From a virus, in the IMG/VR virus record IMGVR_UViG_3300023179_000009, positions 394,814-458,813 of that record: a stretch of 64,000 nucleotides of DNA; one strand, given 5' to 3'. Position numbers and translations under genes: made by a program. Position 1 is the stretch's first letter. Every line of letters begins with the position of its first letter. Below are positions 22,366 to 60,934 of the stretch, one piece after another. The notes beneath the pieces are model-generated. The model had not been told where the DNA came from. It searched no databases and worked only from the letters and a program-made list of their open reading frames with translations.

Positions 22366-25300
22366 ATGAAAAGTTTTATAGAGTATAGAAAAAACAAATT
22401 GCTTAAAGGCAATAAATTAAATATTCAAGAATCTATTATTGAATGCTTTGATCTTTTAAAATTAGATCTATTAAAATCTATAAAATTACCGGATATCCTC
22501 TCTGAGAACACTAGAGTCAAAGCAATCACTGAATCTGCTTATGAAGTTTGTAAAAAAGAAGATTATCAAGACAATAAACAAATAATAGAATTAATAATTT
22601 CCGAATTTAAAAATAATTTTTGGTCACAATTGATATCGGAGGCGACTGCAACCGCTGAAAAAGAACCTAAGGTTACTGTTGATGATTTAAAAAAACAAAT
22701 GTCGGATGAAATAGACTCGATGGTTGGCGAATTAAAACAATTAGTTTCTCGCTCATTATCTGCCTCAAGAACAACAACCGGAAATGACGTTGAGGATGCA
22801 ACAACAAGTTCAACCGAACCCGGTGAAGAAAATTCACCAACACCCAAACTTACCGCAAATCAAGCAAAATACATAAGTGATTTGTATCAAAAATTAGGAA
22901 GAAACCCTCCGTCTGATCTTGATAAACTAAATCCTTTACAAGCCAGTAGGCTTATAGATCAATTAAAAAAACAAATAGGAGCGAGAACAGGATCGCCTGC
23001 TCCATCTTCGTCTCAATTCAACGCCAATCAAACGACTAGCGGGGATGCTGGTGGTGAAGATTTTTCATTAGACGAACCTACTTCTTCGCCAGCCAGTTCT
23101 TCTCCACTTCCTAGTCAACAGGTTATGAATGGAAGATATGTTTTGCCAAATGATTGGAAAAGCAAATACGGAACAAGATATGGCACTGAGAGACCGACAT
23201 ATCCTGACGGGTTTAAACCAGCACCATATGGACACATGAGACCGAGCGATGGTTGGCTAGGTGGTTTGAAAAGAACAATTTGGGATCCTGCTACCGGCTG
23301 GCTAAAAAATAAAACCAGGAACTTTAGAAGACGCTGGCACAGAGATGAGTTTAGAGAACATTTTATTAATTTAGAAAATATATTCTTGGAAAATGCTGTG
23401 GAGATCATGAGTGATATTGACACATGGACCACAAGATTGAAAGATATTGTTTTAAATAAATACTTTGATCAAATTAAAAACTTTTTAAGTGGAGATGTTC
23501 AATCTTTGCCAAAAACCAAAGATTCCGTCGCCGGGAAAACTGGCGATGTTAGTCCAAGACAACAATCGCCCGCTGTTGATGCTGGATCTGGTAAAGTTGA
23601 TGACGACGATGTTGAATACGAAGACGATAATAAGGCCGAAGGCCCCACAGGTGATGTTCAACCCAAGAAATCAAATGATGCTTCCGTCGATTCCAATATT
23701 CAAAAAACTGATTTTACAAAGAAGGAAAGCATATCTGAAGGTGCAAATTTATTGAAGCTGACTTATAGGGACGATAAATTTTACACTTCTAATTCTAATG
23801 AAGAATTAGAGGGAAGTGTTTTGAGAAATTTTTTAATCAGGCAACTTTTAAAGATTTTTCAAAAAGATCAAAAATTACAAGATGAAGTTTGGAAATCAAA
23901 AGATCTAAAAGAAAGAGATGAAGCCGAAGCAAGGTTGGATAAAATTATTGCTAGCTCAATCAAAAGACCCACGGATTTTGAACTACAAATAATAAATGAA
24001 TGGCTTGGTAAATTTGAATCTATTGCATTAACCGGCTATAGCAATAAAAAAACAAATTTTCCTTTAATTTTGGCATATTTCAAATGGCATAAAAAAGAAA
24101 AGTATGGGTTAGATATTAAAACCAATAAAAGAGAACCTAGAAAAACCGAGGGCGATGACTCTGGTGAGGTTGCAGCAAAAAAACAAGATTTAACACCTGA
24201 GCAAAAAAAAGATTTGGAAGAATTCAATAGATTTAAAAAAGAATTCCCTAAAGCTTATAAAAAGTTAATTGATAGTTTCGAAGGCGGAACCGAAGAGGAG
24301 CGGATTAAAGATACCGAAGTTTGGGTTTTAGAGGCGGGCTTAGGAGAAGAATCTGAATTAAAACAAATTATTGAATTTCTAAAAAAACAATCAGGTGAAG
24401 AGTCACAAGAATCAGGTGAAGAGTCACAAGAATCAGGTGAAGAGTCACAAGAATCAGGTGAAGAGTCACAAGAATTAAAAAAAAAATCCCTAACTGATGA
24501 GGAATTTATTTTTAGTTTGCAAAAAAAATGGTTTGAGAACAATAAGTCAACATTAGATTTAAGAGATGTTTTAACAAACAAATTCATTGACAGCGGGAAA
24601 GGGCCGCTAACATTAGATGATCTCAAAAATATAGTTAGTGATTTTGATTTGGAAGACAAAGATCAAATTGAAGAAGCTAGGCAAAAAGTTATGGATGCTG
24701 TTAGAAAGCACCCTATAACTTTGGAAAGAAAAAAAGTAAATAGAGATCAATTAAAAAAAACTAAAGACTCAGATGTAGTTGACCCCGAAACTACGACAAT
24801 AAAAATAAATTCAAACAAAGAAGAAGAGAACCAGATTAAAGATGAACTGGACGAGAATGAAGTTTATCAAAGAATTTATGAAAAATATCAAAATTATCTA
24901 ATTAGCAAAGGCTCAAAAGGAGATGATTTAAGAAATGGCCTAGATTTGTTTGACGAAAAAATTATACAAGATATTTTATTGAAAGGCAAAGATAAAATTG
25001 AAGACATTCTATCTACGCAAGAAAGTCTTTTAGACAATTTGATTGAAAAAATCAAAAAAGATCCCGTACCCGAAAATTCGGATGTGCCCGAGGAGTTAGA
25101 GTCTTCTTTTGAAAAATTAGAAAGAGACACGCAGTACAAAGATTTGACAAAGCAATATGTTGATTCGTTGAGAGGTCAAGGAAAAGATGAAGAAACTATA
25201 AAAAAAGAATTGCATAAAAAAACATTAAAACATGCAAAAGAAATGTTTGATCAAGAAAAAACAATAAAACAAATTGTTCAAGATTATGAAAAAGAATTGG

Positions 25301-25959
25301 GCATAATCCCCGAAGAAAGTCCAGATAAAACTAAATCTTCGCAAAAGTCAGATTCTCAAGAAGAAATCAATAGGATCGCAAGAGATTCAGGGGAAATTAC
25401 TCGAACATCTTCGGGAGATAATGAGGGAACAACTAAATTAGGTGAAGAAAAAAATATAGAAAAAACTATAAAAGACATAACAAAACATGTTAAGTTGCAG
25501 GGCGGCAGTTTGTCTCTAAGAGATGGGAAACTTTTAATTAAAAACAGAGATAAATTAGATAAAAAAACTCAAAATTTAATTAAAAAACACAGGGAAGAAA
25601 TAATAGATTTTTTAACCCCAAAAGAAACAAGATCTCAGAAGACATCGCCAGAAGAAGCAATTGAAAAAAAAGTTAAGCCCGATGATAAAAAACTTGAAGA
25701 AATCCCTGAGAGATTAAAAAATATAGATGGATACGATTCATTGAGACAAGAAATAATAAAAATAATTGAGGGCAGCAATAATCAAGTGATGCGTAATATT
25801 TTAATGAGAAAAGAGTCAGAGTGGCTGGATTCAGATTTGGATGACAATCAAATAATAAAAAATTTAAGAGAATTAAAAAATCGTTTTGAGTCTCAAACAA
25901 GAAAAACTGAGGGTTTTTTGGGGATATTAAAAAGATTTAAAGAGTTAGTTAATTCATAA
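22366..25959 (+). CDS. Giant charged protein with capsid-targeting-like leader and SGEESQE repeats
   Basis: I chose the ATG at 22366, after AAAAGGTGACC, over an in-frame ATG at 22285 that would overlap the previous gene. The 1197-residue product begins MKSFIEYRKNKLLKGN, like other leaders in this genome, and I20-Q21-E22 fits the [LI]-x-E prohead protease site. The body is very rich in K, E, D and S and has a proline/glycine-rich stretch near residues 210-300, four tandem SGEESQE repeats and many short helices. No enzymatic domain was seen. It could be a large internal or core protein, inferred from the leader and composition. Codons are strongly A-rich. Confidence 0.65.
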   Translation: MKSFIEYRKNKLLKGNKLNIQESIIECFDLLKLDLLKSIKLPDILSENTRVKAITESAYEVCKKEDYQDNKQIIELIISEFKNNFWSQLISEATATAEKEPKVTVDDLKKQMSDEIDSMVGELKQLVSRSLSASRTTTGNDVEDATTSSTEPGEENSPTPKLTANQAKYISDLYQKLGRNPPSDLDKLNPLQASRLIDQLKKQIGARTGSPAPSSSQFNANQTTSGDAGGEDFSLDEPTSSPASSSPLPSQQVMNGRYVLPNDWKSKYGTRYGTERPTYPDGFKPAPYGHMRPSDGWLGGLKRTIWDPATGWLKNKTRNFRRRWHRDEFREHFINLENIFLENAVEIMSDIDTWTTRLKDIVLNKYFDQIKNFLSGDVQSLPKTKDSVAGKTGDVSPRQQSPAVDAGSGKVDDDDVEYEDDNKAEGPTGDVQPKKSNDASVDSNIQKTDFTKKESISEGANLLKLTYRDDKFYTSNSNEELEGSVLRNFLIRQLLKIFQKDQKLQDEVWKSKDLKERDEAEARLDKIIASSIKRPTDFELQIINEWLGKFESIALTGYSNKKTNFPLILAYFKWHKKEKYGLDIKTNKREPRKTEGDDSGEVAAKKQDLTPEQKKDLEEFNRFKKEFPKAYKKLIDSFEGGTEEERIKDTEVWVLEAGLGEESELKQIIEFLKKQSGEESQESGEESQESGEESQESGEESQELKKKSLTDEEFIFSLQKKWFENNKSTLDLRDVLTNKFIDSGKGPLTLDDLKNIVSDFDLEDKDQIEEARQKVMDAVRKHPITLERKKVNRDQLKKTKDSDVVDPETTTIKINSNKEEENQIKDELDENEVYQRIYEKYQNYLISKGSKGDDLRNGLDLFDEKIIQDILLKGKDKIEDILSTQESLLDNLIEKIKKDPVPENSDVPEELESSFEKLERDTQYKDLTKQYVDSLRGQGKDEETIKKELHKKTLKHAKEMFDQEKTIKQIVQDYEKELGIIPEESPDKTKSSQKSDSQEEINRIARDSGEITRTSSGDNEGTTKLGEEKNIEKTIKDITKHVKLQGGSLSLRDGKLLIKNRDKLDKKTQNLIKKHREEIIDFLTPKETRSQKTSPEEAIEKKVKPDDKKLEEIPERLKNIDGYDSLRQEIIKIIEGSNNQVMRNILMRKESEWLDSDLDDNQIIKNLRELKNRFESQTRKTEGFLGILKRFKELVNS
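24391..24474 (+). repeat. Four tandem 21-bp repeats encoding SGEESQE
   Basis: TCAGGTGAAGAGTCACAAGAA occurs four times with no change, in frame with the giant charged protein. Identical codons show recent expansion, and copy number may vary between phages. Confidence 0.9.
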
Positions 25960-26474: not shown

Positions 26475-26798
26475 ATGCCATCAAAAAGCAAAAGTCAACA
26501 AAGATTGTTTGGAATAATTCATTCTTGTCAAAAGAATGAAAAGAAAAAGATATGCTCAGAGCCTAGTATTAAAAAAATTATACAAAATATTAGTAAAAAA
26601 GACGCAAAAGATTTTGCCAGCACAAAACATGAAGATTTGCCCGAGAGGTTGGAGAGTTTTAAAAATTGGCTTGAAAGCCAAAAAGGAGAAAAAATGGAAG
26701 AAAACAAATGTATGTGCGATTGCCCACCTTGCAAAAGTGGCGATTGCTCAAGCTGCACCTGCAAAAATTGTAAATGTGAAAACTGCACTTGCAACTAA
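26475..26798 (+). CDS. DUF3008-like small protein fused to metallothionein-like tail
   Basis: A 107-residue protein. The start MPSKSKSQQRLFGIIHSC and the later DFASTKHEDLPERLESF match the DUF3008-type phage family (MPSKSKSQQ..., TKH..LPE), which is common in tailed phages and of unknown role. Residues 74-107 form a cysteine cluster with 11 cysteines. A strong ribosome binding site inside the gene suggests a second product from residue 74 (separate entry). The linker reads SFKNWLESQKGEKM, so the F-x-x-W-L leader pattern appears internally here. Confidence 0.75.
   Translation: MPSKSKSQQRLFGIIHSCQKNEKKKICSEPSIKKIIQNISKKDAKDFASTKHEDLPERLESFKNWLESQKGEKMEENKCMCDCPPCKSGDCSSCTCKNCKCENCTCN
26694..26798 (+). 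CDS. Possible independent 34-residue metallothionein-like protein
   Basis: An in-frame ATG at 26694 is preceded by AAAAAGGAGAAAAA, a textbook Shine-Dalgarno at good spacing, inside the 26475 gene. Translation from it gives 34 residues with 11 cysteines (at 6, 8, 10, 13, 18, 21, 23, 26, 28, 31 and 33), a C-x-C and C-x2-C spacing typical of metallothioneins and other metal-binding peptides. It could bind zinc, copper or cadmium, or be a C-rich virion peptide. Whether the short form is made must be tested. Confidence 0.5.
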   Translation: MEENKCMCDCPPCKSGDCSSCTCKNCKCENCTCN

Positions 26799-30691: not shown

Positions 30692-30892
30692 ATGAAATTT
30701 AAAAATTGGATCCAAAAAGAAAATCTTGCTGGTCCCGGTGGAGGGCCAAGTTTTTCTCCCGAAGATCAAGAGGCTTTAAACCTAAACATTTCAACAAGAG
30801 GGGCCGGAGCTTTTCCTAATTTTTCTCAAAAAATAAAGTTTATGTCGAAAAATAAAAACGAAAAGATACGACAAAAAAAGTTAATTTTTTAA
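30692..30892 (+). CDS. Small protein with capsid-targeting-like leader
   Basis: The 66-residue protein begins MKFKNWIQKENLAGPGGGPS, the F-x-x-W-[LI] leader pattern, but has no [LI]-x-E triplet. After the glycine-rich turn comes FSPEDQEALNLNISTRG. It could be a small internal head protein. No better assignment. Confidence 0.5.
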   Translation: MKFKNWIQKENLAGPGGGPSFSPEDQEALNLNISTRGAGAFPNFSQKIKFMSKNKNEKIRQKKLIF

Positions 30893-38707: not shown

Positions 38708-39535
38708 ATGGCACTAACATTTTCAGAGTATAAAAAGACAAGAGATCAAAGTAATTTTGATCACAAATTTAACAAACTTTGTGAAGGCATAGTTTTAAGT
38801 AATTTGAGTTTTGAACAATATTGGGAAAATTATGCCATACCAACGCTTTTAGAATCCACTTTTGTTTCGGACGAAGAACAACTGTTGAATGAATTTTTTG
38901 GTTTATTTGGAGGAAAAAAACAAAATAATAACACCAACTCACCAAATTTTGATTTTTTAAATGAGCCAAAACAAACTCCAAAACCTTACGGCTCAGGTGT
39001 GTCGTCGGTAAATGCCCCAGGCACAGGCGTGTCTTCAACAAATGACCCTGATTTGATACAAAATTATCAAGCGATGCAAAAAGATGCTCAAGAAAGAAAA
39101 AAAGCAGAGCGTTTGGGTCAATTTCAAAAAAACATAGACGCACAAATAGAAACTGTAAAGCAGAGATTCTCAACTGCGATGAAAGACTTTTTAAAGGCTA
39201 TGACAAATGATGCGAAACAAAGCAATGATCCCCACATGTGGAAAATAGCACAAAATTTTTATAAAAAGATACTTTCTGTAGCGCAACCTGTTGTGGATGA
39301 GTTTAAAATGCAAGCCAGGTACGGCAAGGCTTCGTACAAAGATAATTTTAATAGGCTGACTGATCGCCATCAACAAAAAGTTGGAGATTTTTATGGCAAT
39401 CTAGGCAAGTCTGTCGCTGGTAATACCGTTCCTTCGAATGTCGGTGGAAGTCAATCGCCATCGCCCGCTTCGAATATTGTTATCCCTGGGCAGCAACCCC
39501 AAAAACAACCTCAAAAAATTTGGACGCCCGGTTAA
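38708..39535 (+). CDS. Capsid-targeted-type protein with Q/N/P-rich regions
   Basis: The 275-residue protein starts MALTFSEYKKTRDQ, the leader pattern with F and Y; L24-C25-E26 fits the prohead protease site. A helical half (KNIDAQIETVKQRFSTAMKD) is followed by a proline/glutamine-rich tail (NVGGSQSPSPAS, then PGQQPQKQPQKIWTPG). A possible TATAAAAT box lies upstream. I infer an internal head protein from leader and location. Confidence 0.55.
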   Translation: MALTFSEYKKTRDQSNFDHKFNKLCEGIVLSNLSFEQYWENYAIPTLLESTFVSDEEQLLNEFFGLFGGKKQNNNTNSPNFDFLNEPKQTPKPYGSGVSSVNAPGTGVSSTNDPDLIQNYQAMQKDAQERKKAERLGQFQKNIDAQIETVKQRFSTAMKDFLKAMTNDAKQSNDPHMWKIAQNFYKKILSVAQPVVDEFKMQARYGKASYKDNFNRLTDRHQQKVGDFYGNLGKSVAGNTVPSNVGGSQSPSPASNIVIPGQQPQKQPQKIWTPG

Positions 39536-39573: not shown

Positions 39574-40095
39574 ATGTTAAATGGGAAATACGAATACTCA
39601 TCGGTCCACATAGAAGTTCCTTGTGATTTATCAAAAAAAATCATCAACTGGGGGATAAAAAATATTCAAGATAAAGACCTTCATTATTCTAAAAAAAAAG
39701 AAGTTAATTTTGGAAGAGAAGATGAAATTCACGTGACAATTTTATATGGGATACACTCTGACTGCCATAAAAAAACAACAAATATAATAAAAGATTACGG
39801 ACAGGTTGACTGTTGTTTGGGAGAAATTCAAATATTTAAAGACCCCGAAGGTTACGATGTGGTTGTTATAGATGTTTTAAGTGAAGATTTATTTAAATTA
39901 AATGAGTTGATTGTTAAAAACATTAAACACACCAACAAATATAAAACATACAAACCACACGTTACAATAGCCTATGTTAAAAAAAATAGAAATTGGGACA
40001 AACTAAACAAAGATTTTTTTAAAGATATTAAATTTACTTCAAATCACGCAGTTTTTTCATCTAAAAATGGATTGAAATATGGATTTTTCCTCTAA
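39574..40095 (+). CDS. 2H phosphoesterase (LigT/Acb1-like fold)
   Basis: A 173-residue protein of typical 2H length. Both H-x-T motifs are present: H53-V-T in EIHVTILYGIH and H129-V-T in KPHVTIAYVKK, 76 residues apart. These enzymes hydrolyse 2',5'- or 3',5'-phosphodiester links in cyclic or linear oligonucleotides or tRNA ends. The T4 57B protein (Acb1) is a 2H enzyme that destroys CBASS cyclic oligonucleotide signals; whether this one does so, or repairs RNA, is unknown. Its end overlaps a convergent gene by 39 bases. Confidence 0.78.
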   Translation: MLNGKYEYSSVHIEVPCDLSKKIINWGIKNIQDKDLHYSKKKEVNFGREDEIHVTILYGIHSDCHKKTTNIIKDYGQVDCCLGEIQIFKDPEGYDVVVIDVLSEDLFKLNELIVKNIKHTNKYKTYKPHVTIAYVKKNRNWDKLNKDFFKDIKFTSNHAVFSSKNGLKYGFFL

Positions 40096-40574: not shown

Positions 40575-43106
40575 ATGTGGTGGGATTTTTTTAAAGTATT
40601 CACATATGCCTTTACTGAAGATCCTTTGTCTGAAAAGAACAAAAATGTGCTTACAGGTGCAGGTGTTTCTCAGCTTGATGCAATACCTGATTTGAGATCG
40701 GGAAATGAAGGATCGATAGGCGGTGGGACATCGATTAGACTAAGAGACACAAATGATTTCGTTGACCTCTCCACTGTAACAAATAGGATTCATCGATACA
40801 AAGAGTACGAAAGACTCAGGAATATGCCAGAAATTGAGATGGCTATGACTGTGTTTGCAGATGAGACCTGTCTCTCCGGAGATACAAGAGTTTCTACTCC
40901 ACAAGGCATGAGAACATTGAAAGATTTGGCAGAAAACGAGAAAGAGAGATTCCTTGTTTATTGTTATGATTTTAAAAAACAAGACTACACATTAAGTTGG
41001 GCACACAGTGCCAGAAAAACAAAAACAGCCAAAACTATAAAAATCATATTTGATAATGGGGATCATGTCGTATGCACACCAGACCACAGAATTCTAAATG
41101 CTGAGGCCGAATGGGTTTTGGCCGGAAGTTTAAAAACAGGCGATGAGTTGATGCCATTTTATAGAATTGAAGCAAATCCCGATTTGTCGAACAGCAAAGT
41201 AAATCAATTTCCTAGAATCTATTCAACTATTCATGGCTGGGTACACGAAAGACAATTTATTGATCATTGGAGAACTGGTAAGATACCAGAGGAGTTGCAA
41301 ACCCTAAACAAATATTGCCGAATGATAGCGGGTGGTTTAAATATTCGACAAATAAAAAAAATTACACAAAATCAATTTAAGACTGTGCGTGATAGGTTGG
41401 CGAAACATGGTTTTTCAAACAAAGAACTAAAATGGCTCGGTACAAAATCAAAAACAAGACGGGTAGTCTCGGTATTTGATTATAAAGAAATGGATGTATA
41501 TGACCTATCGGTTGACGAGCATGAAAACTTTGCAACAGATTGGGGCATAGTTCACAATTGTCAAAAAGACGACTCTGGTAGAGCATTTCAAATACACACA
41601 AAAAACAGCGATGCAAAAGAAGAACTTGAATTTTTATTTTTTCACAAAAAAATGTTGAATTTTGACCAAAAAAGAATTTGGAATTTAGCAAAATTACTTT
41701 TTATTTATGGAGACTTTTTTTATGAGGTTATTATAAACCCAGAGAATCCTTCCGAGGGCATTTATAATCTCATACCACTTCCTGCCGATTCGATGTATAG
41801 GTTGGAAACCACCAAAGGAAAACTATTAGAATTTCAACAATCAAAAGAAGGCCCCGATTATCAAAGTTTGGCAAACGTTGATATAACTCAGGCGACAGAT
41901 GCGGACTTGCAACAATCTACAGCCATTCGATTTGCTCCCGAACAAATTATACACATTCGAATTGGGGATGATAGAAAAACTTTTTATCCTTATGGCGTTT
42001 CTTTAATGGAAGCAGCACGTGGTCCAGCACATCAATTAAGATTGATGGAAGATGCCATGGTTGTTTACAGACTGTCAAGATCGCCAGAGCGAAGAGTTTT
42101 TTACATAGATGTCCAACAATTGCCACCATACAAGGCCGAAGCTTTCATAGAAAGAATGAAAGATCAATTCAAGAAAAAGAAAGTACCCAGCACCGGTCGA
42201 GCGCCTGGGGCCTCGTCTGTTGAGGAGAGATGGCAAACTCCTGCTGTCGATGAAGATTTTTGGATTCCGATTCGCCCAAATGCAAACACTAGGGTAGAAA
42301 CGCTTCCTGGGGCAAGCAATCTAGGAGAAATAGATGATGCTCTTTATTTTAGAAACAAGTTATTCACAGCATTAAATTTTCCAAGGAATTATTTTAACAA
42401 CGAAGATGTCAACAGCACCCGAATAGCCTTGTCTGCTCAAGATGTAAAGTTTGCTAGAATGATTGAAAGATTGCAAAGTCATATCGAAGATGCTTTGTGG
42501 GAAGTCTGCAATCGTCATCTTAAATTACAAGGGTATCCTGAGGAGTCTTATGATGATCTTGTTGTTAAGATGACTCCGCCCTCGGATTGGCGTGAACTCA
42601 CAAGAGCGGAAGTGGTTACAAATCGTTTGAACAATGCTTCAAACTTAAAGAGTGCTATGTTGCTTAGTGATTATGATATACTAACAAAATGGCTTAAATA
42701 TAGCGAAGAAGAAGCCAAAGAAATGATAGCAAGATTGAAAATTCAAAAACTTGATGATCTTAAGTTGCAAATTGTTGCACAAAATCCTACATTATTAGGA
42801 GTTGGATTGCCAAATCCAAACGAGCCAGAAATAGGAACAGATCCCGGTGGGCCAAACCCAATGTTGGCACCAGATGCTGGTCAACAAATGGCACCAGATG
42901 CTGGTCAACAAATACCACCAGATGCTGGTCAACCGGCTTTAGGAATGAAAAAATTTATGAATGCTGATCAACAGGTTCCAAAATCTGGTAGTGGGGTGGC
43001 CATACCTGATGCCTCTGAGGAAGATATTCAAAAATACAATTTGGATATTAAAGATTTTGAAAAAGAAATGGATGAAGAAGAAGTTGACATGAGTGAAAAT
43101 TTATGA
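40575..43106 (+). CDS. 20: Portal protein, gp20-like, with embedded intein
   Basis: The 843-residue reading frame contains a 230-residue intein (entry below); the spliced product is 613 residues (T4 gp20: 524). The N-part up to residue 98 is the portal wing, starting MWWDFFKVFTYAFTEDP. After the intein come LLFIYGDFFYEVIINPENP, then APEQIIHIRIGDDRKTFYPYG, and FIERMKDQFKKKKVPSTGRA plus NYFNNEDVNSTRIALSAQD, portal signatures of T4-like phages. The C-terminus has PDAGQQ repeats. It forms the dodecamer through which DNA enters. ATGA overlap with the next gene. Confidence 0.92.
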   Translation: MWWDFFKVFTYAFTEDPLSEKNKNVLTGAGVSQLDAIPDLRSGNEGSIGGGTSIRLRDTNDFVDLSTVTNRIHRYKEYERLRNMPEIEMAMTVFADETCLSGDTRVSTPQGMRTLKDLAENEKERFLVYCYDFKKQDYTLSWAHSARKTKTAKTIKIIFDNGDHVVCTPDHRILNAEAEWVLAGSLKTGDELMPFYRIEANPDLSNSKVNQFPRIYSTIHGWVHERQFIDHWRTGKIPEELQTLNKYCRMIAGGLNIRQIKKITQNQFKTVRDRLAKHGFSNKELKWLGTKSKTRRVVSVFDYKEMDVYDLSVDEHENFATDWGIVHNCQKDDSGRAFQIHTKNSDAKEELEFLFFHKKMLNFDQKRIWNLAKLLFIYGDFFYEVIINPENPSEGIYNLIPLPADSMYRLETTKGKLLEFQQSKEGPDYQSLANVDITQATDADLQQSTAIRFAPEQIIHIRIGDDRKTFYPYGVSLMEAARGPAHQLRLMEDAMVVYRLSRSPERRVFYIDVQQLPPYKAEAFIERMKDQFKKKKVPSTGRAPGASSVEERWQTPAVDEDFWIPIRPNANTRVETLPGASNLGEIDDALYFRNKLFTALNFPRNYFNNEDVNSTRIALSAQDVKFARMIERLQSHIEDALWEVCNRHLKLQGYPEESYDDLVVKMTPPSDWRELTRAEVVTNRLNNASNLKSAMLLSDYDILTKWLKYSEEEAKEMIARLKIQKLDDLKLQIVAQNPTLLGVGLPNPNEPEIGTDPGGPNPMLAPDAGQQMAPDAGQQIPPDAGQPALGMKKFMNADQQVPKSGSGVAIPDASEEDIQKYNLDIKDFEKEMDEEEVDMSENL
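40869..41558 (+). mobile_element. Intein in the portal gene (residues C99-N328)
   Basis: Splice junctions are visible: extein FADET, then C99-LSGDTRVSTPQG as block A, a CTPDHRILNAE block-B-like motif with TPDH, a late block F (VYDLSVDEHENFA) and terminal G-I-V-H-N328 followed by extein C329 (CQKDDSGR). The 230 residues are longer than a minimal intein (about 140), and the middle 90 residues include a helix-turn-helix (IRQIKKITQNQFKTVRDRLAKHGF is split over 256-279) but no clear DOD or HNH nuclease, so it looks like a degenerate homing domain. Cysteine as the nucleophile at both junctions is a class 1 feature. Confidence 0.88.
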
Positions 43107-43847: not shown

Positions 43848-45671
43848 ATGAGAAGAAGACTCATTAAGCAAGATGCCTTTGATAAAATCGTAAACGAATC
43901 TGTTTCAACAGTTAAACGTGAGCTTGTTGCAGCAGAGCCGATTTTGGCAAAAGCAGTGGATAAAACCTATCTTCGTCTGAAATCATTCACAGAATCAACA
44001 GTTCTCTACGAATCTGCCGAGGACACTTTTGTGCATGCTGGATATGAAGTTAAAAATGGACAACTTACCTTCAACAACGTAGAAGAATTAGTCGTTGACG
44101 AAGAATCACAAAAAGAAAAACGCAAAACAACGCTCTCTGAAATGATCGACGCTGTTTTGGTTGACAACAATGATAAAGCCGGTGAATTATTTGAAAATTA
44201 TCTCGGAATGGTTCGTTGGAATGAAGCGAAGAAAAAAGAAGAAGAAGATTCCGAAGATGAAGACGAAGATATGCCAGCTTTCTTGAAAAAGAAGAGCAAA
44301 AAAGAAAAGAAATTGCCAGCTTTCTTGAAAAACAAGAAAAAGAAAGCACACAAAAAACATGACGAAGAAGAAAAGAAAGAAATCGTCAAGAAAATCAAAA
44401 AATCTGACAAAGATCTTGCAGAAGCCTATATCACTTCTCAAAATGTTTTAGAATATGTTGAGTTTATGAAGGTTGGCCCAAGTCTCGCAGAATCGGTTGT
44501 TAAAACTGACGAGAGTGGCAACCTTACCAACATTAAGATACCAACCAGCAAAGTTCGTAACGAAAACAGAATGTTGCGAAGCGACTGGAAAGGCTTGAAT
44601 GCAAAAGTTGCTGAAACCAGAAACAAAGTTGCTGATCTTGTTGAAAATCAAGAATTCTGCAAAGCGGTTGCTGTGTTGAAGAGACAAAATGCTTTTGCCG
44701 ACGCACAAGGACTTGAAGAGGCTTTGGATGTTGTTGTTCAGCAATACCCAGAAGTTCTTTATGCAACCCAATCTGAGTTGGCCGAGGTTGTAAAAGAGGC
44801 TTTAGAAGTCGTTGGTGCTACAAATTTTGACGATAAAGTTTGTGAATTCATGGCCGAGGGCATTTTGAGAAAAGCACACGATGCTTACGCTGAAAAAGTT
44901 TCTCAAGTATTGCACCTCGCTTCTGCAAATAAAGTAGAAGAGGGTGTTGATCCTTACGCTTTCTTCCAATCGGTAGTTGAAAAGTTCTACCCATCATTAG
45001 ATGAAAAATTTGGATTGGAACGCAAAGTTTTCAGCGATCTCTATGAATCACTTGAAGTTGTTTACAAGAAAGCCGAACGTCAAGGCGTCAAATCGGTTAT
45101 GAATGAAACTGCATCTTATCTCAATGATTTGGCTGCTGTTTTAAACAACGAAGTTAAACCAACTTTAGAAGTTGCCGAGGAAACAGCGGAGTATCTTGCT
45201 TCGTTAATCGAGACCAACCTTGAATCGGGGATTTGGGTTGTTTCTAACAAACCACACGAAACTCTTAATGGAGATCATCCAGAGATGAGCAAAAAAGCCG
45301 CTCATGGTTATGCTCCATCAAAAGATTTCTCTGGAAACTATGGCGATCCTCTTCCCGCAGTTGGGTCAGATGATATGAGTTACAAGGGTGGCAAACACTC
45401 AAAAGAAATGAGAAATAAGGGCATGGGTCAAGAAGGCGGAAACGACGTTTTCCCAAGCCTTAAAAACCCTTACGTGCCAACTCCTTTCGGAACTTACACC
45501 ATGAAGGGTGAAAAAGGAGTTGATAAAGATAAAGGCGACTTGCTGAGCGGATCCAAAGACACTTTCCCAAACCTGAAAAACCCTTACGTACCAAAGGAAG
45601 AGGTTGGAACAGGCGGAAAAGGTTACAAAATGAATCACGGCAAAGAAAAGGATTTAGTTGTTGACAAATAA
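43848..45671 (+). CDS. Putative prohead core protein
   Basis: The 607-residue protein is helical and highly charged. It has two repeated PAFLK units (MPAFLKKKSKKEKK, then LPAFLKNKKKKAHKK) around residue 140-165 between acidic stretches, and a C-terminal duplicated FPSLKNPYVP / FPNLKNPYVP block. It lies directly before protease and scaffold, where T4 has the core proteins gp67 and gp68. Many L-x-E sites exist for cleavage. Codons are more C/G-ending than in the small genes, as in other highly expressed head genes. Role inferred from position and composition. Confidence 0.6.
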   Translation: MRRRLIKQDAFDKIVNESVSTVKRELVAAEPILAKAVDKTYLRLKSFTESTVLYESAEDTFVHAGYEVKNGQLTFNNVEELVVDEESQKEKRKTTLSEMIDAVLVDNNDKAGELFENYLGMVRWNEAKKKEEEDSEDEDEDMPAFLKKKSKKEKKLPAFLKNKKKKAHKKHDEEEKKEIVKKIKKSDKDLAEAYITSQNVLEYVEFMKVGPSLAESVVKTDESGNLTNIKIPTSKVRNENRMLRSDWKGLNAKVAETRNKVADLVENQEFCKAVAVLKRQNAFADAQGLEEALDVVVQQYPEVLYATQSELAEVVKEALEVVGATNFDDKVCEFMAEGILRKAHDAYAEKVSQVLHLASANKVEEGVDPYAFFQSVVEKFYPSLDEKFGLERKVFSDLYESLEVVYKKAERQGVKSVMNETASYLNDLAAVLNNEVKPTLEVAEETAEYLASLIETNLESGIWVVSNKPHETLNGDHPEMSKKAAHGYAPSKDFSGNYGDPLPAVGSDDMSYKGGKHSKEMRNKGMGQEGGNDVFPSLKNPYVPTPFGTYTMKGEKGVDKDKGDLLSGSKDTFPNLKNPYVPKEEVGTGGKGYKMNHGKEKDLVVDK

Positions 45672-45690: not shown

Positions 45691-46386
45691 ATGGATCAGA
45701 TGTTACTCATCGATTGCTGTGCTAGCTCTGGATTCGAACTACAACTTAGTGAGTCTACTATGAAAGGTGGACTCACTAAATTTCGTGGCAAGTTCCAAGA
45801 AGCTGAAGCAGTAAACAAAAACAAAAGAATGTACCCTTTTGATGTGCTAAGTGAAAACATTGGCCGTCTTCAAGAGGCAATAGATGATCGTAGACTTGTT
45901 GGAGAGCTAGATCACCCAACAGACTCTATTATACATTTTGCAAATACATCTCACGTAGTTACCAAACTATGGTGGGAAGGAAACGTTCTCATGGGCGAGG
46001 GCGAAATCCTAAACACACCGTCTGGTATGATTTTGAAAAGTCTTATTGATGGCGGCGTTAAAGTTGGTATCAGTTCAAGGGGAGTTGGTAATGGAAAGGT
46101 GAACGAAGATGGCATTCTTGTCATCGGTGAGAGTTATAAACTTATCACATTCGACGCCGTTGCAGACCCCAGCACTTTTGCTGCATTCCAAGAAAAAGTC
46201 GTTGCTAAAGGTGAGAGTTTTAATCCTCAAGTTAAAGAGCAAATTCGTTCTACACAACAAAAATCAAAAATTGCTGTGAAAAATGAAAGCTCCAGCATAC
46301 ATAATGTTAACAAAGAGGTATTAATCGCTTACTTAAGCGGCTTTGTAAAATCTCAAACACAAGAAATTAAGTCGAGGTTAGGCTAA
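45691..46386 (+). CDS. 21: Prohead maturation protease, gp21-like
   Basis: The 231-residue protein (T4 gp21: 212) has the S77 signatures: FRGKFQEAEAVNKNKRMYPF, then VGELDHPTDSII with the catalytic histidine and KVGISSRGVGNG with the catalytic serine, then LITFDAVADPSTFAAF. It assembles inside the prohead and removes scaffold, then matures the capsid. It precedes the scaffold with TAATG overlap. In T4 its specificity is [LI]-x-E, relevant to the leaders found elsewhere in this window. Confidence 0.93.
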   Translation: MDQMLLIDCCASSGFELQLSESTMKGGLTKFRGKFQEAEAVNKNKRMYPFDVLSENIGRLQEAIDDRRLVGELDHPTDSIIHFANTSHVVTKLWWEGNVLMGEGEILNTPSGMILKSLIDGGVKVGISSRGVGNGKVNEDGILVIGESYKLITFDAVADPSTFAAFQEKVVAKGESFNPQVKEQIRSTQQKSKIAVKNESSSIHNVNKEVLIAYLSGFVKSQTQEIKSRLG

Positions 46387-47282
46387 TGGATAAAATTACT
46401 GAAGCATTGAAGAGCATCCTTCCTGCTGAGCATGTCAATGAGGTTGCCAAAGCCGTCGAAGAAATGATGGCTGAAAACGTCGCTGCACTCGAAGCGGAGT
46501 TCCAATCCAAATTGGACGAGGCTTACGAGCAACTTACTGAAGAACGTAAGGCTGATGAAGTCATCGCTGAAAATGGCTATCAACAAGCCTATGACATGAT
46601 TCAGTCTTTGATGGCTCGTTTGGATGAACAACGTGAAGAATTCGAAACAGCGTTAGAAGAAGGCTTTGAAGAAGCCTATAGCGAACTACAAAAAGAAAAA
46701 GGTCGCAACGAAACTCTTGAAGTAGAAATATACGAAGAAGCAGATAAGAAACTTCAAGAAATGAAGAGCATGATGGTTGACAAACTTGATCAATTCTTGT
46801 CGCTACAAGAACAAGAAATGTACGAGTCAGCCAAACGTGATGTTCTCAGCGATCCAAGCATACTTGAGCAAAGAGTTGCAGTTGAGAAGATGGCTGAAGT
46901 CCTTGCTGATTATATCGGTGACGACACCATCAACAATGCAACATCGGCCAAACTTGAAGAAATGCAAAAACAAGTTGAAGCCCTTAAAGGTCAAATGAGA
47001 ATTATTGAAGCCAAAAACGTTCGTCTTGCTACTCAAAACAACAAGTTGACCGAGCAAGTCCGTGAGGCTCACGAAGTGATCACCGAGGCTGCAAAAGCCG
47101 AGAAAACGAATAGATTGAATAAGAAAGAGAATGCAAGTGGGCGTGGACAAAGAGTTGTGAACGAGCAAATTATTAGTGAATATGCCGCTCCAACTGAAAA
47201 ATCGGCAAAAGAGGCTGACCTGCGTGAGGGTCATGATCCTTTAGCCGATCTTCTGGTTCTTTCAGGTCTTGAACAAACCTGA
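46386..47282 (+). CDS. 22: Prohead scaffold protein, gp22-like
   Basis: The 298-residue acidic helical protein (T4 gp22: 269) is composed of long heptad stretches (AALEAEFQSKLDEAYEQL, then EEFETALEEGFEEAYSEL). It ends with a basic linker and ADLLVLSGLEQT. It starts inside the protease stop. It would form the core around which the capsid grows and then be cleaved. Assigned from composition and gene order. Confidence 0.85.
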   Translation: MDKITEALKSILPAEHVNEVAKAVEEMMAENVAALEAEFQSKLDEAYEQLTEERKADEVIAENGYQQAYDMIQSLMARLDEQREEFETALEEGFEEAYSELQKEKGRNETLEVEIYEEADKKLQEMKSMMVDKLDQFLSLQEQEMYESAKRDVLSDPSILEQRVAVEKMAEVLADYIGDDTINNATSAKLEEMQKQVEALKGQMRIIEAKNVRLATQNNKLTEQVREAHEVITEAAKAEKTNRLNKKENASGRGQRVVNEQIISEYAAPTEKSAKEADLREGHDPLADLLVLSGLEQT

Positions 47283-47328: not shown

Positions 47329-48774
47329 ATGAACGCACGTTTCCTCAACGAAGCACGTGAGATCGAGACCAGATGGTCCAAGCCTCTTCGTAACGGCAAG
47401 TCGATGCTTGATGGCATCACCGACCGCTACGAGAGAGCTTCTGCCGCTGTTCTTCTCGAAAATCAACGTCTTATGAACGAAGCTATGACCGACAGTGGTG
47501 ACATTTCGCAATTCAAAAGAATTTCGATACCACTCGTCCGTCGTATCTATCCACAATTGATCGCCAACAAAATCGTTTCGGTCCAACCATTACTTGGCCC
47601 AACCGGTTTGGTCTACTATCTCCGTTTTAGATACTCTTCAAACAAGGGTGCTATGCGTGGTGCTGACCTCAATAGCGGCTTTCCAAGCGACGACGCAACA
47701 TCGTTACAACAACTTGCTAGCGGTGATGGCAATTTAGACATCTTCTACACTCATCAATTTGTTCAAAATGAAACAAGTTCGACTGATGCTGGCGGAGATA
47801 CAACTTCAGTGTATGCTCCACTTGAGCACACTCCAGTTCTTGCCGGAACCGTGACTGGCACCGTTTATGACGGCTCAGTTGCTGTTCAAACATTTGTTGT
47901 TGCCGAGAATGGTACTTTCACCTTCACCGACATCGGAACCCCATCTGCTAAAGCAACTGGCGGCACCGTTGATCTTGTGACTGGCGAAATGACCCTTACT
48001 TGGAACAACGATCCAGGTGCTAACAATGTTGTTGTTTCATATGAATACAACATGGAATGCAATCAAGATCTGCCTGAAGTCAACCTCGTTGTTGAATCAG
48101 AAGAAATTGCTGCTAAGACTCGTAAGTTGAAGGCTGCTTGGAGCTATGAAGCCCAACAAGATCTTCGCTCACAGCATAACCTCGACGCCGAAGCCGAACT
48201 CACCGCAGTTCTCGCTCAGGAAATAAATTTGGAGATAGATAGAGAGGTGCTAACTGACCTTCGTAATAACGCTGGTACAGTGGCTGTGTGGGATTTCAAT
48301 ACTGCTCTCGGTGACACCATCAAAGAGAAGTATGAATCACTCTATGTGAAGGTTGTTGAAGTCAGCAACGTTGTGCATCGTAAGACACTTCGTGGTGGCT
48401 GCAACTGGCTCGTGACTTCACCTGAAGTTGCATCAGTTTTCGAAACTGCTACAGCCGGTTTTGCACCAGCCCCAAGTGAGACTTTCACAAGTTCGCTCGG
48501 CATCCAATATGTTGGCACAATCAACAATCGTTGGAGACTGTATAAGGATCCACTGTTCCCACAAGGTCAAATCCTCATGGGTTACAAGGGCGACAGTTAC
48601 ATGGACAGCGGATACTTCTACTGCCCATACGTGCCACTCACCCAAACCCCAGTCGTACTCGACCCAGAGTCGTTTTGTCCTCGCAAAGGAATATTAACAA
48701 GATATGGGAAAAAGTTGCTTAGAGAGGGAGCAAAGTTCTACGCCCGCATGAGCATCGCAAATTTCATCGTGTAG
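47329..48774 (+). CDS. 23: Major capsid protein, gp23-like
   Basis: The 481-residue protein follows an AGAGGGA Shine-Dalgarno. Features: LIANKIVSVQPLLGPTGLVY, YLRFRYSSNKGAMRGAD, LTDLRNNAGTVAVWDF, the RGGCNWLVTSPEVASVFE strand, and LFPQGQILMGYKGDSYMDSG. L42-L43-E44 near the N-terminus is a candidate gp21 cut site. Residues about 165-242 (HTPVLAGTVTGTVYDG to VVVSYEYN) appear to be an inserted beta domain. The C/G-rich codons show high expression. A strong terminator follows. Confidence 0.94.
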   Translation: MNARFLNEAREIETRWSKPLRNGKSMLDGITDRYERASAAVLLENQRLMNEAMTDSGDISQFKRISIPLVRRIYPQLIANKIVSVQPLLGPTGLVYYLRFRYSSNKGAMRGADLNSGFPSDDATSLQQLASGDGNLDIFYTHQFVQNETSSTDAGGDTTSVYAPLEHTPVLAGTVTGTVYDGSVAVQTFVVAENGTFTFTDIGTPSAKATGGTVDLVTGEMTLTWNNDPGANNVVVSYEYNMECNQDLPEVNLVVESEEIAAKTRKLKAAWSYEAQQDLRSQHNLDAEAELTAVLAQEINLEIDREVLTDLRNNAGTVAVWDFNTALGDTIKEKYESLYVKVVEVSNVVHRKTLRGGCNWLVTSPEVASVFETATAGFAPAPSETFTSSLGIQYVGTINNRWRLYKDPLFPQGQILMGYKGDSYMDSGYFYCPYVPLTQTPVVLDPESFCPRKGILTRYGKKLLREGAKFYARMSIANFIV

Positions 48775-52733: not shown

Positions 52734-53123
52734 ATGAAAACATTTCAAGAGTGGTTGAACGAAAATCGATACCGTGATACTTATTCGCCAGCTTATGGTG
52801 GCGGCAACATAGAGCAACTGGCCAAATCAAGAACCAGTGGCCTTTCCTACGGCGGAAGATCGTTGGCCAATTGGAGTGCTGTTAATGCGGATCGGAATAA
52901 AATAAAAAAAGAAATGAGTGTGGACCAACTATCACGTGATGAGAATGGCGTTCCTACATTGAGTACGGACACAGTGAGAAGGATACAGGATCTTTTGGAT
53001 CGTAAAGGTCTCACCATTTCAAAAGAGTCACCAAATAGATTTGCTGTATTAGACGATGAGGGCAACGTAGTGTTTCATAGCAACGGTTGGTCTGATATTG
53101 AAAAAACCCTCCAGCAGATTTGA
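52734..53123 (+). CDS. Candidate internal head protein 1 of an operon (capsid-targeting-like leader)
   Basis: The 129-residue protein starts MKTFQEWLNENRYRD, strikingly like the T4 capsid-targeting sequence (MKTYQEFIAE), with L8-N9-E10 as a protease site. The body has a glycine-rich segment (AYGGGNIEQLAKSRTSGL) and VQDLLDRKGL-type helix near the end. No enzyme signature. First gene after the late promoter. Confidence 0.62.
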   Translation: MKTFQEWLNENRYRDTYSPAYGGGNIEQLAKSRTSGLSYGGRSLANWSAVNADRNKIKKEMSVDQLSRDENGVPTLSTDTVRRIQDLLDRKGLTISKESPNRFAVLDDEGNVVFHSNGWSDIEKTLQQI

Positions 53124-53972: not shown

Positions 53973-55400
53973 ATGAAAACATTCTTAAATTGGCTCAAAA
54001 ACAAAATAAACGAAAATCAAGATCCTAAAACTATTCGTGATTTAGGGATCGATGGTGTTCCTGATGGTGTGAAAAAACAAATTGATATTTTTTCAAGCGA
54101 TGATTGGCTGCGTGCCATCGATGCTGGGCGAGAATATCAAATGATAAAATTTGCCGATGTTAAGTTTGATTCAATTGAAAAATATTATGCAAACTTAGAT
54201 CAATCAATAAATACTATTCGTGATATAAAAACTTTAAAAATTGGTCAAAAAATTGCAGATTACGCAATCAGAAAAACTCCGTATTGGGTGGTTACGGGCG
54301 TTGATGAGACTAGAAACGTTGTTTACCTTGACCCAATTAAGCCCAATCCATATGTTCCAGATGCTTCTGGAAAGATGGTTGGTGCTGGGGGGCATGAATT
54401 TACAGCACATGATTTTGATGTGATGAGCGGCGAATATGAATCAAGAAAAATTGATCAATTACTCGATATAATCAATTCAAAAAACTATCATGATCCAAGA
54501 GATGTCGCATATATCCTTTTGGGCACAGTGCCGGTGCAATCTGGCCCTAATGGATCTCAAGGGGGTTGGTATAACGTATTTGATAGGCACAATAGGGGCA
54601 GTTTGAAATCAATGACTATTGAGCAAATTATACAAAAAGATGCACAAACTTTAAAAAAACTTGGATTTTCGGTGCCTGCTAAATCTTTAAATGGAACAAT
54701 TAAACCAGATGCTTGGAATGCATATGTTGAGGGAGGATATGTTCCTCGTGGTCAAGAGCAAGAATCGCAACTAGAAGAAGAAGATTTCCAAGATGCTCAA
54801 ACTATGGCAAAAATTATTTTAACTCACAGCCAACCTCAAATTCGTGAAAGAAATGCCGATCTGTTAATAAAAATGTATTCCGATAACCCAGACGGGTTTG
54901 AACCTTTGATCCGGGATGTGTCGATGAAACTTGCTGCCCAACCACAATTCGGTAAAGATTTTGATCGCAATTACAATGTTAAAGGAAAATTTATTTGGCT
55001 TGCTTGGCACAACAAATGGCAAGATATTTTGGATGCTTTCCAAGACAGCCCAGAACCTGACAACAGACGTTATGTTTCACATGGATACAAAGAATCAGGT
55101 AATGTTAATGGAATTATTGAAATGATTAAAAAAGAAACTAGTTCTGAGGCTGTGGGATCGATGTTGAACGATTTATGGAGCATGAAGTTTGAAGGAAAAA
55201 TTCCTTATTTCACTTCGGCTGAAGAGAAGGTTTCTATTTATAAAAAACTTTTTGAAGAAGATGCTGAGTCTAAGGATGTGGTAATATTCTTTTGTTCAAA
55301 CAAAGACAAAATTAAAAAAGTTATAGATAATCACGAATACCACAAAAAAGATGGTGGTATCATTTTTGATAGATTTAGCAAGTTGTGTGAGTTGGTTTAA
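53973..55400 (+). CDS. Candidate internal head protein 3
   Basis: The 475-residue protein starts MKTFLNWLKNKINENQD (leader; I12-N13-E14). The first half contains IADYAIRKTPYWVVTGVDE and alpha/beta segments; the second half looks like repeated helices (LTHSQPQIRERNADLLIKMY, then GIIEMIKKETSSEAVG), maybe HEAT-like. It ends the late operon. No enzymatic family recognised. Confidence 0.55.
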   Translation: MKTFLNWLKNKINENQDPKTIRDLGIDGVPDGVKKQIDIFSSDDWLRAIDAGREYQMIKFADVKFDSIEKYYANLDQSINTIRDIKTLKIGQKIADYAIRKTPYWVVTGVDETRNVVYLDPIKPNPYVPDASGKMVGAGGHEFTAHDFDVMSGEYESRKIDQLLDIINSKNYHDPRDVAYILLGTVPVQSGPNGSQGGWYNVFDRHNRGSLKSMTIEQIIQKDAQTLKKLGFSVPAKSLNGTIKPDAWNAYVEGGYVPRGQEQESQLEEEDFQDAQTMAKIILTHSQPQIRERNADLLIKMYSDNPDGFEPLIRDVSMKLAAQPQFGKDFDRNYNVKGKFIWLAWHNKWQDILDAFQDSPEPDNRRYVSHGYKESGNVNGIIEMIKKETSSEAVGSMLNDLWSMKFEGKIPYFTSAEEKVSIYKKLFEEDAESKDVVIFFCSNKDKIKKVIDNHEYHKKDGGIIFDRFSKLCELV

Positions 55401-57426: not shown

Positions 57427-57427
57427 A

Positions 57428-58167: not shown

Positions 58168-58414
58168 GTTTGTCCTTCTTCTTTTTCTTGATTTTCTTTT
58201 TCTTGTGTTTCTTTGATGCTTTTTTTATCTCGGGATTTAACAAATCTGGGTGAACATCACTGTGCGTTGTTGCAAATGCATTTAAATGTCCAGCAACACT
58301 CGGAGCAAAAGCAAGAGGAGGAAGTTGTCCGCTTCCGTAGAGTGGCGGATATATTCCCAGTGCTGTGCGTTTGCCACGTTCATTTAGCCATTGTGTGAAT
58401 GATTGCAAAGCCAT
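58148..58414 (-). CDS. Lysine-tailed protein with capsid-targeting-like leader
   Basis: The 88-residue protein starts MALQSFTQWLNERGKRTA, with L10-N11-E12 and F6, W9 like the other leaders. A proline-rich middle (IYPPLYGSGQLPPLAFAP) is followed by a poly-lysine tail (KKHKKKKIKKKKKDKLKDLG) that could bind DNA inside the head. Translationally coupled to the next upstream gene (TAATG). Confidence 0.62.
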   Translation of the reverse strand: MALQSFTQWLNERGKRTALGIYPPLYGSGQLPPLAFAPSVAGHLNAFATTHSDVHPDLLNPEIKKASKKHKKKKIKKKKKDKLKDLGL

Positions 58415-58578
58415 TATGTGTTTCCTTTTTTGTGATCCAAGTCTAAAAGCAACATATTTTTGTCAAATTCTTCTTTTGTAATTAGCTCTGCTGCTAACAT
58501 TTTTTCAAGTTTATTTTTTCTTTTTTCGTAATCTTCCTGGGTCATTTCTTCAAAGACCCAATTTTTAAAATCTTTCAT
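58414..58578 (-). CDS. 54-residue protein with capsid-targeting-like leader
   Basis: Found by hand: ATG at 58578, stop at 58414-58416. It reads MKDFKNWVFEEMTQEDYE and continues as a helix (KRKNKLEKMLAAELITK). The start has the leader pattern with V8-F9-E10. It is coupled to both neighbours (ATGA upstream, TAATG downstream), which strongly supports translation. Confidence 0.68.
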   Translation of the reverse strand: MKDFKNWVFEEMTQEDYEKRKNKLEKMLAAELITKEEFDKNMLLLDLDHKKGNT

Positions 58579-60447: not shown

Positions 60448-60496
60448 TAAAATCACACACGCACTATATATGATGTCGTTCAAGAAAGGTGAAATT

Positions 60497-60934
60497 ATGA
60501 AAAGTTTTAATGAGTGGATAAAAGAAAGATTAAAATACAATCAATTTTTTAGCGAGGAAAACCTCTCTCGCACCTACGATAGAAAAGCCTTCGTTAGCCT
60601 TCCTTGGGATTGGAATTCAATGATTAGAGCCAAAGTCATCCAGCCCCTGTTCTATTATGCAAAAGAAAATTATGTAGACGGAAAACCCGAGGTGATGGAT
60701 GATAATTCGGCAAGCGTAATAACTCTTCCCAATCTTAAGTCCATAGATAATAGTGAACTTTCTGCAAAAAACATACACACAGGAAAACCGCCCAACCTCA
60801 ATTCTTTCATGCTTTTGCTTCGCAATCCAGAATCTTGGTACGACCAGAAAATAGACCAGATTTACGACGGCATTAAAATGATTGGAAAAAAGCCAGAGGA
60901 TTTTGGCGGTAGAGACATAAGAACGCTAGATTGA
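60497..60934 (+). CDS. Candidate internal head protein with capsid-targeting-like leader
   Basis: I chose ATG 60497 after AAAGGTGA; the long upstream extension would run through hairpin A. The 145-residue protein starts MKSFNEWIKERLKYNQFF, with I8-K9-E10. The rest includes DDNSASVITLPNLKSIDNSE and a GRDIRTLD end. No family recognised. It sits between two transposon-type hairpins. Confidence 0.6.
   Translation: MKSFNEWIKERLKYNQFFSEENLSRTYDRKAFVSLPWDWNSMIRAKVIQPLFYYAKENYVDGKPEVMDDNSASVITLPNLKSIDNSELSAKNIHTGKPPNLNSFMLLLRNPESWYDQKIDQIYDGIKMIGKKPEDFGGRDIRTLD

What the first reader, a model, noticed from the sequence alone, without database searches (positions are those of the whole stretch)
22366..60934. 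Dispersed capsid-targeting-like leader on about ten unrelated proteins
Proteins at 22366, 30692, 38708, 43680(-), 52734, 53133, 53973, 58414(-), 58578(-) and 60497 start with M-K-[ST]-F-x-x-[WY]-[LI] or a close variant, although their bodies are unrelated. In most, an [LI]-x-E triplet follows within about 25 residues (for example L8-N-E10, I12-N-E14, I8-K-E10). The T4 internal proteins start MKTYQEFIAE, which targets them to the prohead and is cut by gp21 after [LI]-x-E. A gp21-like protease and a scaffold are encoded here. I infer a large head-packaged, perhaps ejected, cargo set. Two of the genes are too short or oddly placed for easy annotation, so the motif helps to find them.
Basis: partly seen in the sequence, partly recalled or inferred. 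Interest (0 to 1): 0.9.

Follow-up and report, generated by a model that had tools for sequence, protein, structure and literature searches.

The report
Head-packaging tags on jumbo-phage cargo proteins
A giant T4-type phage puts the same short N-terminal address tag on many unrelated proteins, very probably so that they are loaded into the virus head and trimmed there; because the tag can be read from sequence alone, it gives a way to list the proteins such phages may carry into bacteria, some of which look like weapons against bacterial immunity.

Summary
The window is one end of a 458,813-bp T4-type phage record. About seven of the ten proteins carry a clear leader (M-K-[ST]-F-x-[EQD]-W-[LIM]) or a close variant; three are weaker. 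The leader also occurs elsewhere in the genome, in the nearest relative (LR756511) and in many IMG/VR contigs, on about 95 unrelated protein bodies. A profile built from these phages only, without T4 sequence, ranks T4's packaged proteins IPIII, IPII and IPI 2nd, 3rd and 5th of 1,392 T4 ATG starts. The conserved positions (4, 7, 8, 10) are those known to drive T4 targeting and cleavage. [LI]-x-E sites are enriched after the leader. In cyanophage S-CREM2, all four proteins with the strict leader were detected in virions by published mass spectrometry. An Acb1-like protein occurs with the leader in one phage and without it in this window. I conclude that it is a divergent T4-type capsid-targeting propeptide. 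Cargo in relatives includes Acb1-like, NADAR, SAM-lyase-like, ADP-ribosyltransferase and tRNA-repair enzymes. Cleavage, packaging and ejection in this phage itself remain inferred.

The parts
52734..53123 (+). Leader protein, 129 aa, MKTFQEWLNE|N; residues 1-21 hit PHROG 2667 'internal head protein' weakly, profile start to start
   Evidence: E 0.11; 21.2 bits
53133..53966 (+). Leader protein, 277 aa, MKTFQRFFLTE|E (weak variant; leader kept in the 86% identical relative L319). Fold not determined
   Evidence: AF2 pLDDT 57.6
53973..55400 (+). Leader protein, 475 aa, MKTFLNWLKNKINE|N; orthologs in L102 and L104 keep F4, W7, L8 and [IL]NE
   Evidence: (11.6 bits)
60497..60934 (+). Leader protein, 145 aa, MKSFNEWIKE|R
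   Evidence: 21.0 bits
58148..58414 (-). Leader protein, 88 aa, MALQSFTQWLNE|R, Lys-rich tail; similar proteins L099 (MLTFMDWLKAKE) and L134:15694 also have a leader
   Evidence: (13.7 bits)
58414..58578 (-). Short leader protein, 54 aa, MKDFKNWVFEE
   Evidence: 4.8 bits
43333..43680 (-). Leader protein, 115 aa, MYNFTDWLNNKRLKE|N, on the opposite strand between portal and core genes; leader present in 42/42 loci examined at this site
30692..30892 (+). Short leader protein, 66 aa, MKFKNWIQKEN (one residue short)
38708..39535 (+). Weak-leader protein, 275 aa, MALTFSEYKK; relative in L181 begins MRSFTEFLEE
   Evidence: E 8e-8
22366..25959 (+). Weak-leader large protein, 1197 aa, MKSFIEYRKN...NIQE
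   Evidence: 2.6 bits
16758..17078 (+).
   Evidence: by eye; low score because of register
26475..26798 (+). DUF3008 protein with an internal leader copy (SFKNWLESQKGEKME) after the DUF3008 domain; same arrangement in L134 and in the MS-detected S-SCSM1 ORF93
   Evidence: (11.3 bits)
45691..46386 (+). T4 gp21-type prohead protease
   Evidence: PHROG 207, E 6.3e-49
46386..47282 (+). Scaffold by position (gp22-like), between protease and major capsid protein
   Evidence: gene order; ortholog in L017 42% identical; no family hit
47329..48774 (+). gp23-type major capsid protein
   Evidence: 78% to LR756511; also hits annotated gp23
40575..43106 (+). T4-type portal protein with an intein
   Evidence: Portal_T4 9e-75, Intein_splicing 6e-14
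43848..45671 (+). 607-aa protein in the place of T4 gp67/gp68 core proteins, role inferred from order only
   Evidence: 43% ortholog in L017
39574..40095 (+). Acb1-like 2H phosphoesterase WITHOUT leader; its 42% identical homolog in L134 has the leader MKTWQQFLQE

Best explanation
The leader is a T4-type capsid-targeting propeptide in a form with Trp at position 7. Aromatic residues at 4 and 7 plus the hydrophobic residue at 8 probably form one face of a short helix that docks on the scaffold core, so that any protein bearing it is co-assembled into the prohead. The gp21-type protease then cuts after the nearby [LI]-x-E, at residue 10 or a little later, freeing the mature cargo inside the head. 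The cargo is probably delivered with the genome and acts at once on the host. The prefix is modular: it has been gained or lost in front of unrelated bodies, including Acb1-like, NADAR, SAM-lyase-like, ADP-ribosyltransferase, NUDIX and tRNA nucleotidyltransferase enzymes. Shown here: the motif, its N-terminal placement, its modularity, the enrichment of cleavage-like sites, recovery of T4's packaged proteins, and co-occurrence with mass-spectrometry-detected virion proteins in cyanophages. Inferred: docking, cleavage, packaging and ejection in this phage.
For: Independent profile test in the window. Genome-wide and relative-wide recurrence. 161 ORFs fall into 95 body families. [LI]xE in 61 of 94 families against 27 +/- 4; where residue 10 is not E, 31 of 60 against 12.3 +/- 2.8, P < 0.0005. 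Blind ranking of T4 gp61.1, IPIII, IPII, IPI at 1, 2, 3, 5 of 1,392 ATG starts. T4 targeting residues 4 and 7, processing residues 8 and 10 (PMC9026906). S-CREM2 virion MS (PMC10665884): strict leader on 4 CDS of 219, all four detected and non-structural, P = 3.5e-4 against undetected. S-SCSM1 top hit is the virion NMNAT, MKSFLQFLKE. Modularity: Acb1-like pair, ART with and without leader. gp21-type protease present.
Against: No proteomics exists for this uncultivated phage. Only some of the ten window proteins score strongly. The S-CREM2 leaders have Phe, not Trp, at position 7. One strict leader gene of S-SCSM1 (ORF30, MKTFKQFMSE) is not marked as a virion protein. T4 Alt is packaged but was not recovered by the profile. 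Tagged tRNA-repair enzymes and HicA-like proteins have no known need to be packaged. Glu 10 can be both part of the leader and the cut site, so the two overlap in many proteins.
Confidence: 0.85

Rival explanations
1. The leader targets proteins to the prohead or core but is not cut, or the proteins are assembly factors that leave before packaging and are never delivered to the host.
For: T4 shows that targeting (residues 4, 7) and processing (8, 10) are separable (PMC9026906); about a third of families have no [LI]xE by residue 30.
Against: The triplet is enriched well beyond shuffles and is kept at shifted positions in the 43680(-) gene; enzyme cargo such as SAM hydrolase, kinase and NMNAT is found in purified cyanophage virions.
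Confidence: 0.15
2. The leader is a targeting or docking signal for something other than the head, for instance a replication compartment, a membrane or a host partner shared by many phage proteins.
For: Bodies are very diverse, including tRNA nucleotidyltransferase, HicA-like and GNAT domains, not obviously structural.
Against: It matches T4's experimentally defined capsid-targeting sequence position by position; clusters of leader genes lie beside head genes; MS finds leader proteins in virions of S-CREM2.
Confidence: 0.06
3. Chance or low-complexity resemblance: short Lys/Phe/Trp-rich starts common in AT-rich phage genomes.
For: Some pattern matches are coincidental (for example a terminase segment MKTFFEWFPPG); several window members score low.
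Against: Start-codon specificity P = 7e-6 in the window and about 1e-45 in relatives (the latter partly circular); at least a 6-fold excess over the F4/W7-swapped control.
Confidence: 0.01

Closest known systems
Phage T4 capsid-targeting sequence of internal proteins IPI, IPII, IPIII
   Same: About ten residues at the N-terminus, M-K-T-[FY]-x-E-F-x-x-E; aromatic 4 and 7, hydrophobic 8, Glu 10 in IPII and IPIII; unrelated bodies; gp21-type protease in the genome; recovered blind.
   Different: Trp is preferred over Phe at 7; at least 14 copies per genome against a few in T4; dispersed genome-wide; the cut-like site may lie further in; cargo includes recognisable enzymes; also occurs internally or at the C-terminus after DUF3008.
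Cyanophage virion-associated enzymes (S-CREM2 SAM hydrolase, APH/ChoK kinase, NMNAT; PMC10665884)
   Same: N-termini MKDFDSFLEE, MKRFDAFLTE, MKNFSSFLTE; proteins detected in virions.
   Different: Phe instead of Trp at 7; the authors do not report a targeting leader in the text read; different phage family (Kyanoviridae).
phiKZ/SPN3US ejection proteins with long propeptides
   Same: Head-packaged, protease-processed, proposed to be ejected (PMC5694885).
   Different: Propeptides mostly much longer (over 100 residues in several); no hit of the leader profile in phiKZ.
P1 DarB N-terminal capsid targeting sequence (PMC9024508)
   Same: Short N-terminal signal sends an anti-restriction protein into the head.
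   Different: P1 lacks a separate scaffold system according to that paper; sequence similarity not tested here.

Membership tests
T4-type capsid-targeting propeptide (CTS) proteins | N-terminal ~10-residue leader with targeting residues at 4 and 7 and processing residues at 8 and 10 | tested here: met
   A1 alignment: F4 invariant, W7 over 90%, hydrophobic 8; E10 in 34/94 families, the rest often with a later [LI]xE
T4-type capsid-targeting propeptide (CTS) proteins | Profile similarity to T4 internal proteins | tested here: met
   IPIII, IPII, IPI rank 2, 3, 5 of 1,392 T4 ATG starts with a profile lacking T4 sequence
T4-type capsid-targeting propeptide (CTS) proteins | gp21-type protease, gp20-type portal, gp23-type capsid protein in the same genome | tested here: met
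T4-type capsid-targeting propeptide (CTS) proteins | Cleavage by gp21 after [LI]-x-E | tested here: inconclusive
   Sites are enriched over shuffles; cleavage itself not observed
T4-type capsid-targeting propeptide (CTS) proteins | Leader is modular in front of unrelated or leaderless bodies | tested here: met
   95 body families; Acb1-like pair with and without leader; ART pair
T4-type capsid-targeting propeptide (CTS) proteins | Protein present in the mature head | not testable with these tools
   No proteomics for this phage; met by proxy in S-CREM2 and S-SCSM1
T4-type capsid-targeting propeptide (CTS) proteins | Ejection into the host with DNA | not testable with these tools
   Needs infection experiments
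phiKZ/SPN3US ejection proteins | Long N-terminal propeptide | tested here: not met
   Predicted cut sites lie mostly at residues 10-18; no phiKZ profile hit
P1 DarB capsid targeting | DarB-like N-terminal 30 residues | not tested
   Known only from PMC9024508

The most novel reading that the evidence does not exclude
Huge T4-type phages carry a general 'address label' that loads a large, exchangeable arsenal of enzymes into the head, many of them counter-defence (Acb1-like anti-CBASS, NADAR, SAM lyase, ADP-ribosyltransferase, tRNA repair), for release at the first moment of infection. New defence inhibitors could then be found by searching for the label alone.
Probability: 0.55. Interest if true: 0.88.

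Novelty: new variant of a known kind. Interest (0 to 1): 0.78.

Why it matters
Most genes of huge phages have no known function. A sequence tag that marks head-packaged proteins would sort out a large class of them at once, much as signal peptides do for secretion. The tagged set in relatives contains enzyme families known or suspected to defeat bacterial immunity, which suggests that these phages deliver counter-defence before any phage gene is expressed. The tag also explains why cyanophage virions contain enzymes such as SAM hydrolase, a kinase and NMNAT, an observation left open in the papers read (PMC10665884, PMC9602691). It may also be of use for loading proteins into phage heads.

Tried and rejected
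Chance resemblance was tested with an independent training set, start against non-start codons, shuffles, and an F4/W7-swapped DNA pattern, and rejected. A structure prediction of the 53133 protein gave pLDDT 57.6 from two sequences, so no fold search was run; a kinase-like fold was only a guess from sequence and is not claimed. tblastn of the DUF5662 and 53133 proteins against phage records gave no match. The leader profile finds nothing in Atu_ph07, RaK2, S-PM2, Syn9, RAS14, LR756508, KVP40, phiKZ or phage G, but it is strict on Trp 7 and would miss Phe-type leaders. Pattern matches in siphophage-type terminases (MKTFFEWFPPG) and in a protease/capsid-like family of small phages (MKTF[AE]EWLKA) were judged unrelated or unclear; the first group was removed from the statistics, the second counts as one family. 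A T4-late-promoter-like element in front of leader genes is suggestive only (12 of 93 against 4.2 +/- 1.9 shuffled). Full-text searches found no report of this tag in jumbo phages or cyanophages, but only an open-access library was searched.
Full report
SETTING. The window is positions 394814-458813 of a 458,813-bp virus record. It encodes a T4-type head module: a portal of the gp20 family, interrupted by an intein, a gp21-type protease (PHROG 207, E 6e-49), a scaffold by position, and a gp23-type major capsid protein that is 78% identical to that of the 595-kb huge phage LR756511.

IS THE LEADER REAL? All ten ORFs exist as described. To avoid circularity I trained a profile only on eleven leaders from LR756511 and scored every codon of every window ORF. 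Five start-codon positions reached 8 bits among 1,429, and none of 25,934 non-start codons did. The others are weaker or shifted by a residue: 43680(-), 58578(-), 30692, and, weakest, 22366, 38708 and 53133. The 43680(-) gene is supported by conservation: at the same place and strand, about 3.6 kb before the capsid gene, 42 of 42 loci examined start with an aromatic at 4 and at 7 (position counted within the leader) followed by a cleavage-like triplet in 41 (loose triplet definition), while the rest of the protein diverges (31% over 49 residues to L134). Three loci that lacked the gene were left out of that count.

HOW FAR DOES IT REACH? In this genome leaders also occur at 27362(-), 73824, 172822, 204196 and 211472(-), with variants at 17544(-), 183452(-) (TTG start) and, inside a longer ORF, 362751. 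LR756511 has about 14 profile hits. In 80 loci carrying a related capsid gene, 32 of 10,266 ATG codons but only 10 of 494,927 non-start codons reach 12 bits (this profile included some orthologs, so the P of about 1e-45 is partly circular). Locus L180 has six leader genes in a row behind the capsid gene. The leader ORFs fall into 95 families with unrelated bodies.

IS IT THE T4 CAPSID-TARGETING SEQUENCE? The T4 IPIII signal is the first ten residues; mutants show that residues 4 and 7 matter for targeting and 8 and 10 for processing (PMC9026906). In the aligned leaders F4 is invariant, W7 is over 90%, 8 is hydrophobic and E is the commonest residue at 10. A profile built only from huge-phage leaders ranks T4 gp61.1, IPIII, IPII and IPI at places 1, 2, 3 and 5 among 1,392 T4 ATG starts. 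This is a blind recovery of T4's packaged internal proteins and nominates gp61.1 as another one. T4 Alt, also packaged, is not recovered.

CLEAVAGE SITES. [LI]-x-E with Glu at 10-30 occurs in 61 of 94 families against 27 +/- 4 after shuffling residues 9-30. In the 60 families without Glu at 10, 31 have a later triplet against 12.3 +/- 2.8. The site therefore moves while the leader stays, as expected of a protease site. Cleavage itself was not observed.

ARE SUCH PROTEINS IN VIRIONS? The best outside test is cyanophage S-CREM2, whose virion proteome is printed with coordinates (PMC10665884 Table 3). Of 219 CDS, four match MK.[FLY]..[FWY][LIM]: SAM hydrolase MKDFDSFLEE, kinase MKRFDAFLTE, NMNAT MKNFSSFLTE and ORF13 MKDLHSFLTE. 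All four were detected in virions and none is a structural protein (P = 3.5e-4 against undetected CDS, 0.003 for all virion proteins against the rest). ORF136 (MQTFSMFFSE) and the Cas9-like ORF12 (internal RFASFMAE) are further virion examples. A looser pattern also finds two undetected CDS (ORF30, ORF175). In S-SCSM1 the top-scoring CDS of 64 is the virion NMNAT, MKSFLQFLKE, and its virion DUF3008 protein ends in TFKEFLEYIE, matching the internal copies in the window and in L134. One strict leader gene there, ORF30, is not marked as detected. The strict patterns were written after looking at leaders from other phages, but the looser variants were tried on the same data, so these P values are indicative.

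MODULARITY. The window's Acb1-like phosphoesterase (39574) has no leader. A 42% identical protein in L134 begins MKTWQQFLQE, and the two align from residue 3 and residue 13 onward. The ADP-ribosyltransferase L004 carries the leader before the domain, while its phage PBC5 homolog begins almost directly with the domain. Behind the capsid gene, the window and LR756511 both have three leader genes in a row; no similarity between the two sets was found by tblastn.

CARGO. Pfam hits on tagged proteins include Acb1 (29.8 bits, cut-off 27), NADAR (2e-19, weak leader MLTWTEFLEA), SAM lyase (27.0 bits, just under the cut-off of 28), Arr-type ADP-ribosyltransferase, NUDIX, isochorismatase, tRNA nucleotidyltransferase with HD domain, HicA, GNAT, RNA ligase, phosphotyrosine phosphatase and DUF5661, DUF5662, DUF6321. 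No window leader protein has a recognised enzyme domain. Family names suggest but do not show counter-defence.

VERDICT. The leader is best explained as a divergent, heavily used T4-type capsid-targeting propeptide (0.85). Delivery into the host is likely (about 0.6) but not shown. The kind is known; what is new is the scale, the Trp-7 form, the internal and C-terminal copies, and the enzyme cargo.

Noticed in passing
window 40575-43106 (+): The T4-type portal gene carries an intein (Pfam Intein_splicing 6e-14).
   Followed up: no
window 39574-40095 (+): Leaderless Acb1-like (anti-CBASS) 2H phosphoesterase just upstream of the portal gene.
   Followed up: partly
L079 around 1501 (own genome 183452, minus strand): A leader protein with a TTG start seems to be interrupted by an intein-like insert (read by eye).
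   Followed up: no
L001 (own genome 211472, minus strand): HD domain plus tRNA nucleotidyltransferase in one tagged protein, with a second leader-like stretch (RFKTFIEATEHE) at the joint, as if two tagged proteins had fused.
   Followed up: partly
L082 (own genome 49644, minus strand): A serine-protease-like ORF (by eye) ends in a leader-like motif, SLFKNWIKEKIKNE, at the C-terminus.
   Followed up: no
T4 record NC_000866, 18966-19130 (minus), L067: T4 gp61.1 (MKTFKEFIKE, 54 aa) looks like an unrecognised capsid-targeted protein; it outranks IPII and IPIII in the profile test.
   Followed up: partly
S-CREM2 OR473000, 7704-10313 (minus), L322: The virion-detected Cas9-like protein has a shifted leader-like stretch, RFASFMAE|AA.
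   Followed up: no
Upstream of many leader genes in LR756511 and IMG/VR loci: T4-late-promoter-like TATAAATA/CTAGATA elements lie about 10 bases before the ATG; modest enrichment (12/93 against 4.2 expected).
   Followed up: partly
window 60999-62165 (+): ORF that looks like a TnpB-type transposon protein (by eye only).
   Followed up: no
window 31863-33308 (-): Metallopeptidase-like protein (Pfam Peptidase_M36, E 1.4e-6).
   Followed up: no
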